Shown one piece after another: positions 3,632 to 9,089 of a stretch of 9,089 nucleotides of DNA. The stretch comes from CAYFZR01 sp046760505 [NCBI: Candidatus Hydrothermarchaeota archaeon]. GTDB lineage: Archaea > CAYFZR01. The translations under genes and the position numbers were made by a program. Location: the NCBI GenBank assembly GCA_046760505.1, contig JBHIEG010000049.1, positions 1 through 9,089 on the forward strand, written 5' to 3'. Each line of letters begins with the position of its first letter. Position 1 is the stretch's first letter. The notes beneath the pieces are model-generated. The model saw nothing but the letters and a program-made list of their open reading frames with translations, searched no databases and was not told the DNA's origin.

Positions 3632-3657
3632 TGAGAGAGGATAAATAAACTCTCTCA
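3632..3657 (-). terminator. Hairpin at the end of the clamp gene
   Basis: TGAGAGAG and CTCTCTCA form a perfect 8-bp stem with a 10-base loop, beginning at the clamp gene's own TGA stop. A T-rich run (GATTTTTTAG) follows within ten bases. This looks like a transcription terminator or an mRNA-stabilising 3' hairpin. Confidence 0.5.
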
Positions 3658-4593
3658 AAAATCTTCAGGGTATTCCCTTTCGGGTTCTATGTATTGATGT
3701 TCTAGATCGTTCACTTCCCTATTAGCCAAAGTAAGTTTCAAAGTTATCTTATCAGGGTTTGAGAGAACGAGTTGTAGTGGATTGTTGTTGCCTATTCTCA
3801 AAACAAACTCATCTGTAAAGGCGTTTCTTCCCAAATCAAACATATTGGTTAAAGAACCCCATTCATATATCGCTGAAACTTTGAAATCGTTTTGTGCCAT
3901 AACACTCAAGTCTTTGTTCGGATTAGTGTTGTATCTCGGTATCTGTGTTATTACCTGCTGGTATTGGTTGAATGTCGTCAAAATCAAAAAATCCTTTTCT
4001 GCTATTATCTTCACTTCACCCCCTGTATCATATCCGTAACTTCTTCTTCCTGTTCCCAATAGGGTTTCTATGTCTTTTAACCCTGTTTTGAAATCTTTCT
4101 TGCTTATCGGTATTTCCACATCAATTCTTTTCTCAAACTCCTTTTCCACTTTGTCTATCTCATCTCCGTCAATTTCCTTTTCATCTATCGAATACAAAGG
4201 CAACACAAACCTTTTCTTCACTTCTCTTTTCTTGTTTCTTTCATTCACTTGTTCAACTACCAAATGTCCCTTTCCATCAACTGTTAATCTCGCCAAATGC
4301 CCCCAACCACTATAAACTCTTTTCATAGCAGTTAAGAAATCATCTAACCTAACTTTCAATACTGTTTTCTCTGGAACTTTGTATTCGGCAAATCCAGATT
4401 TTCTCATAAAGAAATTAACCACAGCGTATCTGCCATCGTTTGTTTCTTTAATTCGTAGTCCGTCTTTATCGAACATCAGTTTTACTGAATTTACTAATGG
4501 TTTCATAGCCCTTAAACTCGCTAAAAAGGTTTCGCTACTCGTCACTACTTCAAAACTCTCTTTTGGCTTAGAAGTTTTTATTTTCTTAGCCAT
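3655..4593 (-). CDS. PCNA-like DNA sliding clamp
   Basis: The 312-residue protein shows the two-domain outline of archaeal PCNA. In the first domain an SSETFLASLRAMKPLV helix precedes strands around VKLMFDKDGLRIKE, the DGL turn typical of PCNA. In the second, ISKKDFKTGLKDIETL is followed by VKIIAEKDFLILTT. The C-terminus holds DEFVLRIGNNNPLQLVLS then KITLKLTLANREV, matching the PCNA end where Pl-x-l and an APR-type tail occur. A clamp ring tethers polymerase, ligase and nucleases to DNA. It is longer than the usual ~245-250 residues, owing to a 10-residue basic leader, a charged insertion near 115-160 and an acidic tail. GGTGAG precedes the ATG. No clamp loader is recognised, though an AAA+ ATPase lies upstream. 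Confidence 0.75.
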   Translation of the reverse strand: MAKKIKTSKPKESFEVVTSSETFLASLRAMKPLVNSVKLMFDKDGLRIKETNDGRYAVVNFFMRKSGFAEYKVPEKTVLKVRLDDFLTAMKRVYSGWGHLARLTVDGKGHLVVEQVNERNKKREVKKRFVLPLYSIDEKEIDGDEIDKVEKEFEKRIDVEIPISKKDFKTGLKDIETLLGTGRRSYGYDTGGEVKIIAEKDFLILTTFNQYQQVITQIPRYNTNPNKDLSVMAQNDFKVSAIYEWGSLTNMFDLGRNAFTDEFVLRIGNNNPLQLVLSNPDKITLKLTLANREVNDLEHQYIEPEREYPEDF

Positions 4594-4665: not shown

Positions 4666-5790
4666 CTAACTCCAATCTATCGAAGAATTGTTCTTTATAG
4701 CCCTTTTAATCCTGAAGAAAGTTCTTCTTGAATAACCTGTTTCAGTTATGAACCGAGATATTTGCTCTTTGATAGATAGATTGCTTTCCATCAATTCTAA
4801 AACAATTTTCAAAGGATTTGTATTTTTTATTAAAATATCTTTAATAATTTCTTTCCACGCTTGTCCATTCAAAACATCTGGATAATTCTTGTAATATTCA
4901 TAGATAATAGAAGATTGTATCAAAGTTCTGAAGTTTAGGTTTTCTGTCGCTTCTGTTGTATTTTTTCTGATGAAGTCTACGATTTTTAAATCAATTTTTA
5001 ATACCTTTGCCAATTCATAGAAAATCTTTATCAACTCATCGTAAGAGAAATTTAACCTATAAACTAATGCTCTCGAAAAAAGACTTTCTATTATTTCTTT
5101 GTTTTTGCTCGGTATCTTGTTTAAACACAATATTATTTTTCCGTTGAACTCGAAATTTAGGGGGGCTTTTAACTTCTCGGTTGAACTGTAATAACTCACC
5201 ATTCTAATATCTTTAGCACTCTCCCATAGACACGCTTTTAGGAGTGAAATCTTAGTCAAGTCATCGAGTATTTTTTCAACATCATCTAAGAATATTATCT
5301 TATCTTTGTTAGAATAGAGCAGATGATACAATTCCAAAGCAGTTATGTATGAGTTCAAGTAAATATAGTCTTGGTTTATCCTTAACCCCAATTCATTTAG
5401 TGTCGAAAGAACAGTAAAAGTCTTACCCAAACCACCATTAGAAATCAAGATTAAGCCGTTATTATTTCCCTTTACAGTTATTTTAACCAATTCTTTGACT
5501 TGCCTAAAGTATTTGTCTAATTCTGGACTTGAAACTTTTATCTTCTTGATTGCTTTCTCAAATTGTTCTTTAACATACTCTTGCTCAAGTAAGTTTGCCT
5601 GTTGTTCTAAGTATTCTTGCTCATCTTTCTGGTATTCAACAAATTTCCCCACTATGTTATTGAAGTTCTCGCTGAAACTAAGAGAATTATCCCAATAACT
5701 TTCTAAATCAAATGACGCAGGATCACTAAATCCTTTTTTCTTTAACGCTTTGATAATTTTTTCCTTTCTTTTTTTGGTTAATCGAACCAT
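4666..5790 (-). CDS. AAA+ ATPase of the phage/archaeal-virus type
   Basis: The 374-residue protein has a charged, coiled-coil-prone N-terminal region (residues 1-90), then an AAA+ core. Walker A is SNGGLGKT (117-124), Walker B is IIFLDD (165-170), sensor 1 is probably N224 in LCLNK, an arginine finger is likely R240 in ESLFSR, and a sensor 2-like arginine lies in NFRTL (286-290). The middle, with LLKACLWES, a SYYSS turn and NFEFNGKIILCLN, resembles AAA+ proteins of tailed phages whose role is uncertain. The C-terminus (340-370) looks like a helix-turn-helix. It lies just upstream of the clamp gene. Helicase loading, replication initiation or clamp loading are plausible; the sequence does not decide. 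Confidence 0.75.
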   Translation of the reverse strand: MVRLTKKRKEKIIKALKKKGFSDPASFDLESYWDNSLSFSENFNNIVGKFVEYQKDEQEYLEQQANLLEQEYVKEQFEKAIKKIKVSSPELDKYFRQVKELVKITVKGNNNGLILISNGGLGKTFTVLSTLNELGLRINQDYIYLNSYITALELYHLLYSNKDKIIFLDDVEKILDDLTKISLLKACLWESAKDIRMVSYYSSTEKLKAPLNFEFNGKIILCLNKIPSKNKEIIESLFSRALVYRLNFSYDELIKIFYELAKVLKIDLKIVDFIRKNTTEATENLNFRTLIQSSIIYEYYKNYPDVLNGQAWKEIIKDILIKNTNPLKIVLELMESNLSIKEQISRFITETGYSRRTFFRIKRAIKNNSSIDWS

Positions 5791-7389: not shown

Positions 7390-8220
7390 TTAAATGAACT
7401 TATTAAATTTTGGAAAACGGAACTTCTTTGATTTGGGTATCATTTCCTGATACCTAACTTCTATCTTGACTTCTCCTAACTTCTTTCTTCTGAAATATTC
7501 CTGTCTTTCCGTTTCAGAATTGAACGACACATCTCCGTGTGGTGTTATTAAAGCCCCGAATGATCCCCAACCCGAAGTTTCTTTGTAGTCCAACACACTC
7601 ACTACCATCTTTTTGGTGGGTTTCACCTTTAACCAAGAGTAACTTCTTTGGTTCTCGTAAACGCTATTTTCTTTCTTCGCTATCATTCCCTCAAATCCTT
7701 TCTTTAATATATCTTTATAGAACTCTTTTCCGTCGTTTTCCACGAATTTGATAATTTTAACTCTATCAGTTTCTTTAACAAAATCTTTAAGAATTTTTTT
7801 CCTTATGAACAAAGGTTGGTTTCTCAAATCGTCTCCATTAGCATAGACAACATCAAAAACCACATAGGTTAAGGGTGTGAGTTTAGATAGGAACTTTGCT
7901 CTCAATTTACTTTGTATGTGTATTCTTGTCTTGAAGTTTGGATTGTGGTAATCTTCTCTCTTACCGTCATTCAAGACCAATTCCCCATCTAACACAATAC
8001 TCTTAATTCTGTCATCAAGAAAACCCAAGTTGTGAAATTCTGGAAACCTATCCGTCAAATCGTAACTATCCCTGTTCTGTATCCTGAAGTAGTTGTTCTT
8101 CTTATCTATCAAAAAAACTGTTCTTGAACCATCTAATTTCGGTTCATAGATAAAGCCATTTTCATCAATAGGTTCACTCTTTTGACAAAGCATTACCTCA
8201 AAGAACTCTTTTAAATCCAT
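7390..8220 (-). CDS. ATP-dependent DNA ligase, compact LigD-like type
   Basis: The 276-residue protein holds the nucleotidyltransferase motifs in order. Motif I is EPKLDGSR with K28 as adenylated lysine, motif III is VLDGEL (76-81), motif IIIa is YVVFDVVY (119-126), motif IV is FEGMIAKK (176-183) and motif V is WLKVK (196-200). A reduced OB domain ends with EVRYQEMIPKSKKFRFPKF, the arrangement of LigD-type ligases of bacterial and archaeal NHEJ. It lacks the N-terminal DNA-binding domain of replicative archaeal Lig1 (about 550-600 residues) and the polymerase and phosphoesterase domains of LigD. It seals DNA nicks or ends using ATP. Its ATG overlaps the coiled-coil gene's TAA (TAATG), and Ku lies just upstream, so a joint end-joining role is likely. 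Confidence 0.9.
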   Translation of the reverse strand: MDLKEFFEVMLCQKSEPIDENGFIYEPKLDGSRTVFLIDKKNNYFRIQNRDSYDLTDRFPEFHNLGFLDDRIKSIVLDGELVLNDGKREDYHNPNFKTRIHIQSKLRAKFLSKLTPLTYVVFDVVYANGDDLRNQPLFIRKKILKDFVKETDRVKIIKFVENDGKEFYKDILKKGFEGMIAKKENSVYENQRSYSWLKVKPTKKMVVSVLDYKETSGWGSFGALITPHGDVSFNSETERQEYFRRKKLGEVKIEVRYQEMIPKSKKFRFPKFNKFI

Positions 8221-8357
8221 TATTTTAATCTCCTAAACTTGATTTTACTCACTTTACTCTTACACATTTTTTCAGAAAGAGTTAGGTTTTTTCTTTGCTC
8301 TTTTAACACTTTTAGTTTCTCCTCCAACTTCTTTATCTTTTTATCTAAATGTGTCAT
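8220..8357 (-). CDS. Short coiled-coil protein between Ku and ligase
   Basis: The 45-residue protein reads MTHLDKKIKKLEEKLKVL, then KEQRKNLTLSEK, with a basic tail (KSKVSKIKFRRLK). Leucines and isoleucines at heptad-like spacing in residues 4-27 predict a coiled coil, and the tail could bind nucleic acid. AGGT lies before the ATG. The stop overlaps the ligase start by one base, so the two are translationally coupled. It might be an adaptor for the ligase, but no known NHEJ factor of this size comes to mind. Confidence 0.6.
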   Translation of the reverse strand: MTHLDKKIKKLEEKLKVLKEQRKNLTLSEKMCKSKVSKIKFRRLK

Positions 8358-8371
8358 ACTTCTTACCTGTT

Positions 8372-8397
8372 AAAATGAAAAAAAGAAAAAAACAAAA
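8372..8397 (-). terminator. T-rich terminator after the Ku-like gene
   Basis: Directly after the TGA the minus strand carries four runs of 4 to 7 T (TTTTGTTTTTTTC, then TTTTTTTCATTTT). Such T-tracts terminate archaeal RNA polymerase without a hairpin. Partial read-through would feed the coiled-coil and ligase genes, for which no clear promoter is visible. Confidence 0.6.
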
Positions 8398-9089
8398 TCA
8401 AGCCACCTTTACTGCTATCTTCTTCGGTTTCTCTAACTCATCTAACATAGTCATATCCACATTAGACGGTATCTCGATTTTCTTTTCTTCTTTGACTTCT
8501 ATCTTCTTACCCTGTTTCTTGAGTTTAATGAACTCATAGTATTTGTCTATGTTCTCGTTTCTTGTCAATTCTTCTACTCTTTTGTCTAATTGCTCGTTCT
8601 TAACCAATACCTTACTGCCTACTTGGTTTGTAGGTCTAACTAATCGCATATCCCTTAACGGAATTGCTAACAATTTTCTTGCTGTTCCAACTATCAGAAC
8701 TGTTCTCATCTTCTTGGAATAACCCATCTTTGCTATGAAACACAAATCCTTTACGAATAGAGTTTCTTTCATTCTTGCTAAAACGGGTTGAAACCTATCT
8801 TCGTTGTTGAACAATTCCAACTTACTATCTTCTTTCAATTCTTCATACAGTTTGTTGAATATACTGTATGGTATTGGTTTACCGACAACAACTATCTCTT
8901 TCGGTGTTTCGTTCTTCAAGAATGTGTCGTATTCTGATTTAAAGAATACTGTTTTTGTGTCTTTGTCAAACCTTTTCTCGATTTCTCCAATTCTATATTG
9001 TTTACCACAAGAACAGATGTATTTTTGCTCTAACTTGGTATTACACTCGTTACAGATTAAGTTGTTCTGTCCACGCCAATTACTCTCTA
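8398..9089 (-). CDS. ku: Ku-like NHEJ end-binding protein, 5' end cut off
   Basis: The open frame continues to the window edge, giving 229 visible residues; an internal TTG start at 8919 would drop the cysteine region and is less likely. The visible order follows bacterial/archaeal Ku: a CxxC-x(9)-CxC knuckle (NECNTKLEQ, YICSCGK) like the C-x-x-C of many Bacillus-type Ku proteins, then EIEKRFDKDTKTVFFKSEYD where Ku has its IvKGYE-YV-L segment, then KMRTVLIVGTARKLLAIPL and RDMRLVRP where Ku has the A-LRP-L-L--L-Y--EVR segment, then QLDKRVEELT and a KYYEFIKLKKQGKK tail. About 25-30 N-terminal residues should be missing. Ku rings bind DNA ends and recruit LigD. A coiled-coil gene and a LigD-like ligase follow. 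The match is by pattern, and the family's key glycines are partly changed. Confidence 0.65.
   Translation of the reverse strand, partial: ESNWRGQNNLICNECNTKLEQKYICSCGKQYRIGEIEKRFDKDTKTVFFKSEYDTFLKNETPKEIVVVGKPIPYSIFNKLYEELKEDSKLELFNNEDRFQPVLARMKETLFVKDLCFIAKMGYSKKMRTVLIVGTARKLLAIPLRDMRLVRPTNQVGSKVLVKNEQLDKRVEELTRNENIDKYYEFIKLKKQGKKIEVKEEKKIEIPSNVDMTMLDELEKPKKIAVKVA

What the first reader, a model, noticed from the sequence alone, without database searches (positions are those of the whole stretch)
7390..9089. A Ku-like protein and a LigD-like ligase form a minimal end-joining module on what looks like an archaeal mobile element
The ligase motifs are clear and of LigD type. The upstream frame matches Ku in segment order, including the cysteine knuckle. 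NHEJ is rare in archaea, and the known Methanocella system has separate Ku, ligase, polymerase and phosphoesterase genes. Mycobacteriophages Omega and Corndog encode Ku and are proposed to use host LigD for genome circularisation. Here Ku and ligase appear together without polymerase or phosphoesterase, next to a PCNA-like clamp, which suggests self-sufficient sealing of linear genome ends or resistance to double-strand breaks.
Basis: partly seen in the sequence, partly recalled or inferred. Interest (0 to 1): 0.8.

Follow-up and report, generated by a model that had tools for sequence, protein, structure and literature searches.

The report
Ku-like end-joining pair, archaeal element
What looks like a piece of an archaeal virus genome carries a very divergent Ku-like DNA-end-binding protein followed by a small DNA ligase of the break-repair type, a pair that would let the virus seal its own DNA ends; viral Ku has so far been reported mainly in phages of mycobacteria.

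Summary
On the minus strand lie a Ku-like frame (8398-9087, cut by the window end), a 45-codon frame and a 276-aa LigD-type ATP ligase (7390-8220), in operon-like order. The Ku-like frame escapes Pfam, NCBIfam, PHROGs and plain HMMER, but profile alignment to Ku is collinear over about 185 columns (score 50.4-50.6), against at most 31.9 in 400 shuffles, 26.4 in 600 other ORFs and 31.7 in 100 zinc-ribbon ORFs. Most of that score comes from the four-cysteine segment; the barrel alone gives none. Linkage is a second argument: 13 of the 14 best ligase relatives in the genome scan have Ku beside them, the other is cut by a contig end. Four-cysteine Ku occurs in 5 of 82 Ku frames, all in the phylum of a nanoarchaeal genome; nearest ligases and AAA-gene relatives point there too, one on a contig with terminase and portal genes. 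Ku plus ligase without a polymerase is common in archaea, so minimality is not special, and absence of polymerase or phosphoesterase here cannot be judged because the window ends inside Ku. Genome circularisation or break repair is inferred, not shown.

The parts
8398..9087 (-). Ku-like protein, 229 codons, 5' end beyond the window
   Evidence: hhalign to Ku profiles 93%, 185-186 collinear columns with controls; blastp to Ku of G393 24% over 220 columns
9007..9054 (-). four-cysteine segment of the Ku-like protein (CNEC...CSC), probable zinc ribbon
   Evidence: sequence; a like signature in 5 of 82 Ku frames, all five from the phylum of G002
8220..8357 (-). 45-codon frame, lysine/glutamate-rich, possibly coiled-coil (by eye), its stop overlapping the ligase start (TAATG)
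   Evidence: translation and sequence; no homolog sought
7390..8220 (-). ATP-dependent DNA ligase of LigD/NHEJ type without N-terminal DNA-binding domain; nucleotidyltransferase motifs present, shortened OB-fold end
   Evidence: Pfam PF01068 2.5e-32, TIGR02779 1.7e-39, alignment with archaeal Ku-linked ligases
4666..5790 (-). AAA-type ATPase of PHROG 1250 (context)
   Evidence: phrog_1250 3.1e-24; relatives in 3 of 194 genomes of the phylum of G002, E down to 3.6e-54
3655..4593 (-). divergent PCNA-like sliding clamp (context)
   Evidence: PF00705 22.9 bits, cut-off 20.3; sliding-clamp models 5.8e-9; solved sliding clamps 1.1e-5

Best explanation
A virus (or virus-like element) of a DPANN archaeon, most likely in or near the Nanoarchaeota, carries a divergent two-protein end-joining module: a Ku-like protein that would dimerise around double-stranded DNA ends, and a small LigD-type ligase that it would recruit to seal them. 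The pair was probably taken from an archaeal Ku-ligase operon and has diverged fast. Its most likely job is to join the ends of the element's own linear DNA (circularisation after entry, or repair of breaks made by host nucleases). Shown here: the two genes, their order, homology of the ligase, remote homology of the Ku-like frame, linkage of Ku to the ligase's relatives. Inferred: ring formation, recruitment, host, and the biological purpose.
For: Ku homology: hhalign score 50.4-50.6, collinear over about 185 columns; none of 600 other ORFs, 400 shuffles or 100 zinc-ribbon ORFs above 31.9. Smith-Waterman against 82 Ku frames: the best 8 each exceed the highest of 300 shuffles of that Ku (z 4.8 to 13.0). 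Of the 8 best ligase hits in the phylum of G002, 6 have Ku within 1 kb: 5 of the 7 fetched with flanks, and G002 itself (L018); one of the two without is near a contig end. The best ligase hits there and in the scan are Ku-linked archaeal ones: G563 (2.7e-44), G393 (1.5e-38), Archaeoglobus JdFR-37 (5e-41). Signature: CxxC-x(6-12)-Cx(1-2)C in 5 of 82 Ku frames; all five are among the 7 frames from the phylum of G002 that include this region. The motif C.[ED]C[NH]T.L, chosen after seeing the two sequences, is in 2 of 10,290 distinct ORFs on hand: the window frame and the Ku of G393. Element: AAA relatives in 3 of 194 genomes of that phylum, one on a contig with terminase and portal, one 3.6 kb from an integrase. 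G002 holds L018, isolate LFW-252_1, 'Ca. Tiddalikarchaeum', Nanoarchaeota (PMC8561730, passages).
Against: No curated Ku model matches; HMMER scores are not significant. When the frame is cut up, the cysteine segment (1-45) alone scores 31.2 (0 of 120 shuffles, but 1 of 100 zinc-ribbon ORFs reaches that), the rest (45-229) only 22.3 (shuffle max 21.0, 0 of 120), the barrel part alone 13.4 (48 of 120 shuffles as high) and the C-terminal part 18.0 (4 of 120). A single-sequence search gave 22.5 bits to a protein that I read as a CBS-domain protein, as much as to the best Ku (20.7). Folding without an alignment failed (pLDDT 38.1). The model built from an alignment with 28 Ku rows (67.3) leans to Ku by design; its 41 Foldseek matches at E<=0.001 are all chains of entries titled as Ku or NHEJ/DNA-PK complexes, but the 50 listed rows have TM-scores only up to about 0.36, and the best VIA Z is 7.6, under the 8 at which the tool warns of common arrangements. 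The ligase is a long branch whose place is unsure; with long-branched phage and viral ligases present it joins those, without them it falls between the Ku-linked and Ku-less groups. None of 38 viral ligase loci has Ku. No end-joining activity is tested, viral status rests on relatives of one gene, and the AAA host link has no control: the empty search of the Archaeoglobus phylum shows nothing.
Confidence: 0.7

Rival explanations
1. The Ku-like frame is not Ku but an unrelated zinc-ribbon protein that happens to lie upstream of a replicative-type viral ligase; the ligase then works at nicks and Okazaki fragments with the PCNA-like clamp and AAA ATPase.
For: Most of the profile score lies in the cysteine segment and the barrel part alone has none; 1 of 100 zinc-ribbon ORFs matches that segment's score; phage ligases of similar size without Ku exist (0 of 38 viral loci with Ku); clamp gene in the same element.
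Against: Full-length score 50.4 is far above all controls, and without the cysteine segment the best alignment still falls in the right order and register at the C-terminal half of Ku; the best-scoring ligase relatives are Ku-linked; 24% identity over 220 columns with the Ku of G393.
Confidence: 0.15
2. A functional Ku-ligase pair whose main purpose is protection against host nucleases (mending breaks made by CRISPR or restriction enzymes) rather than circularisation of the packaged genome. This is a variant of the best explanation, not exclusive of it.
For: General logic; the same enzymes would serve. None of four window proteins scanned matches a PADLOC model, which neither supports nor excludes it.
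Against: None specific; the two purposes cannot be told apart from this sequence.
Confidence: 0.3
3. The window is a piece of a DPANN archaeal chromosome or plasmid, not a virus, and the pair is the cell's own fast-evolving NHEJ.
For: Nearest Ku-ligase pairs lie among cellular-looking genes in archaea (L008, L018, L211, L213); no structural virus gene was found in the window frames scanned.
Against: All ORFs over 100 aa on one strand among many small frames; AAA gene of PHROG 1250 whose relative lies on a contig with terminase and portal, with similar proteins in 100 phage records; divergent clamp; no plainly cellular family beyond ligase and clamp in the 12 of 38 listed window ORFs that were scanned against Pfam or PHROGs.
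Confidence: 0.15

Closest known systems
Archaeal and clostridial Ku-ligase gene pairs (e.g. Archaeoglobus sp. JdFR-37 L008, Ca. Tiddalikarchaeum L018, G393 L213)
   Same: Ku and a LigD-type ligase as separate adjacent genes; in L008 and L213 in the order Ku-ligase; four-cysteine Ku in G393
   Different: Cellular, and their Ku is recognised by the Pfam profile; the window's Ku-like protein is not, has a shorter helical tail in the alignment, and a small frame separates it from the ligase
Mycobacteriophage Ku (Omega gp206, Corndog gp87)
   Same: Ku on a viral genome, proposed to help circularise the genome by NHEJ (PMC3706429, passages; the 2006 paper only as cited there)
   Different: That phage Ku works with host LigD is recalled; neither of the two phage regions that I opened (L006, L007, about 1 kb on each side of Ku) shows an annotated ligase
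Methanocella paludicola AP-NHEJ (Ku, Pol, PE, Lig as separate proteins)
   Same: Archaeal NHEJ with separate proteins (PMC4797286, passages)
   Different: There the phosphoesterase is operonic with polymerase and ligase; in the window nothing can be said upstream of Ku
Small ATP ligases of SPbeta-type phages (YoqV/LigB)
   Same: Size and domain make-up
   Different: No Ku within 1 kb in 38 viral ligase loci, mostly of this kind by size and similarity

Membership tests
Ku (PF02735) | Match to the curated Ku profile over its cut-off | tested here: not met
   No PF02735 hit at E<=1 in hmmscan; hence called Ku-like, not filed as a Pfam Ku
Ku (PF02735) | Sequence homology along the Ku core, in order | tested here: met
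   hhalign 93%, 185-186 columns, above all controls; weak outside the cysteine segment and none in the barrel part alone
Ku (PF02735) | Ku beta-barrel fold | tested here: inconclusive
   Single-sequence model pLDDT 38.1; Ku-alignment model 67.3 matches Ku chains, Z up to 7.6, TM about 0.3, but is led by the Ku rows
Ku (PF02735) | N-terminal strand and start of the protein | not testable with these tools
   Beyond the window end
Ku (PF02735) | Homodimer ring that binds DNA ends | not testable with these tools
   Needs biochemistry; no dimer prediction was possible
LigD-type (NHEJ) ATP-dependent ligase | ATP-ligase nucleotidyltransferase motifs (KLDG, FDV, EGMIAKK, WLKVK; motif names recalled) | tested here: met
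   PF01068 2.5e-32; conserved in A3
LigD-type (NHEJ) ATP-dependent ligase | NCBIfam equivalog cut-off (TIGR02779) | tested here: not met
   135.9 bits against 227.75, though it is the best-scoring model; hence called LigD-type by likeness and context
LigD-type (NHEJ) ATP-dependent ligase | Relatives encoded beside Ku | tested here: met
   39 of the 80 loci kept by the genome scan; 13 of the best 14
LigD-type (NHEJ) ATP-dependent ligase | Complete OB domain with C-terminal motif VI | tested here: inconclusive
   OB part shorter than in archaeal relatives, ends at FRFPKFNKFI without the R.DK seen in L008 and L018
Complete AP-NHEJ (with polymerase and phosphoesterase) | Pol and PE genes | not testable with these tools
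   Not seen in the window frames scanned; the element extends beyond it
PCNA | PCNA_N profile over its cut-off | tested here: met
   22.9 bits against 20.3; the stretch matched is residues 27-91 of 312

The most novel reading that the evidence does not exclude
An archaeal virus lineage, infecting DPANN archaea, encodes its own complete Ku-ligase end-joining machine, not borrowing the host ligase, to close or mend its genome; it would be the first such pair described for an archaeal virus as far as my paper searches can tell.
Probability: 0.5. Interest if true: 0.72.

Novelty: new variant of a known kind. Interest (0 to 1): 0.6.

Why it matters
Viral Ku was seen here almost only in mycobacteriophages: of 81 phage records that match one Ku query at E <= 0.01, 80 are Mycobacterium phages and one is an unverified faecal contig. 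A Ku-like protein with its own ligase on an archaeal element would make virus-borne, host-independent end joining testable with two small proteins, would show how far Ku can diverge, and would offer a route by which NHEJ genes move among archaea.

Tried and rejected
Close relatives of the Ku-like frame: none confirmed by tblastn among the 37 pattern-matched stretches of viral contigs and the 122 of genome contigs, none in phages at E<=10; in plasmids four weak hits, one a Burkholderia Ku at E=3. Single-protein scans of viral contigs with the ligase, clamp and AAA confirmed nothing. Viral loci found with ligase alignments (L088-L125, L157-L161) carry no Ku by my profiles. Hits of the Ku-like frame in 371 genomes of the phylum of G002 (20 genomes at E<=0.1): the three that I examined further (G507, G563 contig C30, G366) are not Ku by hhalign; G507 reads as a CBS-domain protein and G366 as a helicase by my recall of their motifs. 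The Ku of G393 is in that list at E=0.085; the other 16 were not examined. The AAA search of 246 genomes of the Archaeoglobus phylum gave nothing, which without a positive control shows nothing. A frame of L169 (12824-13282) thought to be a possible clamp is unlike the window's clamp. Extension of the window was not possible: no own genome is held, and the cap for metagenome scans is 0. Foldseek/VIA rows on the Ku-led model are not counted as independent evidence. Papers: the searches list no paper on Ku in archaeal viruses by title (searches listed none; one search listed 10 of 4,709); most listed papers were not opened, and only open-licence papers are held. Papers opened, by passages only: PMC11936186, PMC7824862, PMC4797286, PMC3706429, PMC7719229, PMC8561730. 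An earlier count said 43 Ku sequences; the profile held 42.

Full report
What is there. All ORFs over 100 aa of the window lie on the minus strand. In the direction of transcription they are a Ku-like frame (9087-8398, open at the window end), a 45-codon frame (8357-8220), an ATP ligase (8220-7390; its start overlaps the stop before it), several small frames, an AAA ATPase (5790-4666), a divergent PCNA-like clamp (4593-3655) and more small frames. No tRNA was found. The window has no close DNA match among 50,697 phage records. Twelve of the 38 listed ORFs were scanned against Pfam or PHROGs.

Ligase. Pfam DNA_ligase_A_M 2.5e-32. Among NCBIfam models the NHEJ ligase domain TIGR02779 scores best (1.7e-39, 135.9 bits) but under its cut-off of 227.75. 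It aligns with Ku-linked archaeal ligases, 38% and 37% identical to those of L008 and L018, and keeps the nucleotidyltransferase motifs (names recalled); its OB part is shorter and stops before the R.DK of those relatives. Against solved structures, full-length DNA ligases of 550-570 residues (archaeal by my recall) score best over residues 24-207 and the mycobacterial LigD ligase domain lower (1.5e-15 against 9e-10), so sequence alone does not settle the ligase type; gene context does more.

Ku-like frame. Pfam, NCBIfam, PHROGs and PDB sequence searches do not call it Ku. I collected Ku sequences from the loci on hand with the Archaeoglobus Ku that lies beside the ligase of L008 and from family searches. 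HMMER with these profiles is not significant. hhalign gives 92.9 and 93.0% probability, E 3.8e-7 and 3.5e-7 for one comparison, 186 and 185 columns in Ku order. Controls: 600 stop-to-stop ORFs of 180-300 aa (best 26.4), 400 shuffles (best 31.9) and 100 ORFs with a comparable cysteine pattern (best 31.7). Dissection: the four-cysteine segment alone scores 31.2, which 0 of 120 shuffles but 1 of the 100 zinc-ribbon ORFs reaches; the rest scores 22.3 (0 of 120 shuffles, best 21.0) and lies in the right place of Ku; the barrel part alone gives no signal (48 of 120 shuffles as high) and the tail alone little (4 of 120). Smith-Waterman against 82 Ku frames: the best 8 exceed the highest of 300 shuffles each, z 4.8-13.0. 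Direct blastp alignment to the Ku of G393 is 24% identical over 220 columns, E 0.003 for that one pair. The four-cysteine signature occurs in 5 of 82 distinct Ku frames: 5 of the 7 frames from the phylum of G002 that include the region, and none of the 72 from elsewhere. The motif C.[ED]C[NH]T.L, chosen after seeing the sequences, is in 2 of 10,290 distinct ORFs, the window frame and the Ku of G393. A caution: phmmer with the window frame gave as many bits to a protein that I read as a CBS-domain protein (22.5) as to the best Ku (20.7). Without an alignment the fold prediction failed (pLDDT 38.1). With 28 Ku rows it gave 67.3 and matched Ku chains, at TM about 0.3 and Z up to 7.6, which is expected from such an alignment and is not counted as independent.

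Gene linkage. Of these 80, 39 have Ku within 1 kb; of the 14 best-scoring 13 do and the other starts at a contig end. Of 38 viral loci none does. Of 7 ligase loci fetched with flanks from the phylum of G002 (the best 8 hits less G002 itself, which also has Ku) 5 do, and one of the other two is near a contig end. So the ligase's closest kin are NHEJ ligases by context. The trees place the window ligase on a long branch: with 103 rows its nearest rows by path are archaeal Ku-linked ligases, but it is drawn with long-branched phage and viral ligases; without those it falls between the Ku-linked group and the Ku-less one. Its exact place is unsure.

Which element and host. The AAA protein belongs to PHROG 1250 (3.1e-24); tblastn finds similar proteins in 100 phage records, those listed being mostly large phages. 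It has relatives in 3 of 194 genomes of the phylum of G002 (down to 3.6e-54), all three of PHROG 1250: on a contig with terminase and portal (L169), on a short contig with a broken ligase frame upstream (L168), and on a 624-kb contig about 3.6 kb from a tyrosine integrase (L170). G002 holds L018, isolate LFW-252_1, which PMC8561730 (passages) names 'Ca. Tiddalikarchaeum anstoanum', Nanoarchaeota. Ku signature, nearest ligases and AAA relatives thus point to the same phylum, although only two archaeal phyla were sampled. The clamp resembles archaeal clamps (organism names of the PDB rows recalled). A DPANN virus or provirus is the best reading; no structural gene was found in the window.

How special. 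Ku occurs in 40 of 246 genomes of the Archaeoglobus phylum and 4 of 194 of the phylum of G002. Among the 44 Ku-bearing genomes, 27 match the phosphoesterase family and 17 the polymerase family at E<=0.001, 14 of these over the cut-off (genome completeness not given). PMC7719229 (passages) reports Ku with a LigD ligase domain in ten of 243 archaea. Ku plus ligase without polymerase is therefore ordinary in archaea; what is new is the carrier and the divergence. A 2025 survey lists 11 viral Ku sequences, those shown in the passages being of mycobacteriophages and a Streptomyces phage (PMC11936186, passages). In the phage collection 80 of 81 records that match my Ku query are Mycobacterium phages.

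Mechanism. From established knowledge of AP-NHEJ (PMC4797286, passages; PMC3706429, passages), Ku binds ends and the ligase seals them; in mycobacteriophages Omega and relatives Ku is proposed to serve circularisation. The same for this element, with its own ligase, is the most likely reading; repair of nuclease breaks is the main alternative purpose. None of this is tested here.

Noticed in passing
L155:16-2028 and L156:1432-3435: Single open frames of 671 and 668 aa hold a Ku domain followed by an ATP ligase domain with its C-terminal region: Ku-ligase fusion proteins in archaea of the Archaeoglobus phylum. A third genome (G191) has a 663-aa Ku frame that was not examined.
   Followed up: partly
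L169:1-13640: Contig in a genome of the phylum of G002 with terminase, portal, an ERCC4-type nuclease domain and the PHROG 1250 ATPase: probably a tailed archaeal virus.
   Followed up: partly
L170:4980-12945: Tyrosine integrase, PHROG 1250 ATPase and a large frame without Pfam match on a 624-kb contig: probably a provirus.
   Followed up: no
L168:735-1507: DNA ligase coding stretch that seems split over several frames just upstream of the PHROG 1250 ATPase; only the 1040-1507 piece was scanned and matches a ligase domain.
   Followed up: no
L211:3-1201: A Ku C-terminal frame overlaps the ligase start by 4 bases in G563, whose ligase is the best-scoring relative of the window's.
   Followed up: partly
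window 4666-5790: PHROG 1250 has no assigned function; the similar phage proteins listed are annotated hypothetical or thioredoxin. Its closeness to a clamp gene here and a ligase in L168 suggests a replication role.
   Followed up: no
L005:542-1522: A 5.5-kb unverified faecal 'Bacteriophage sp.' record encodes a Ku close to cellular Ku; it may be a bacterial fragment.
   Followed up: no
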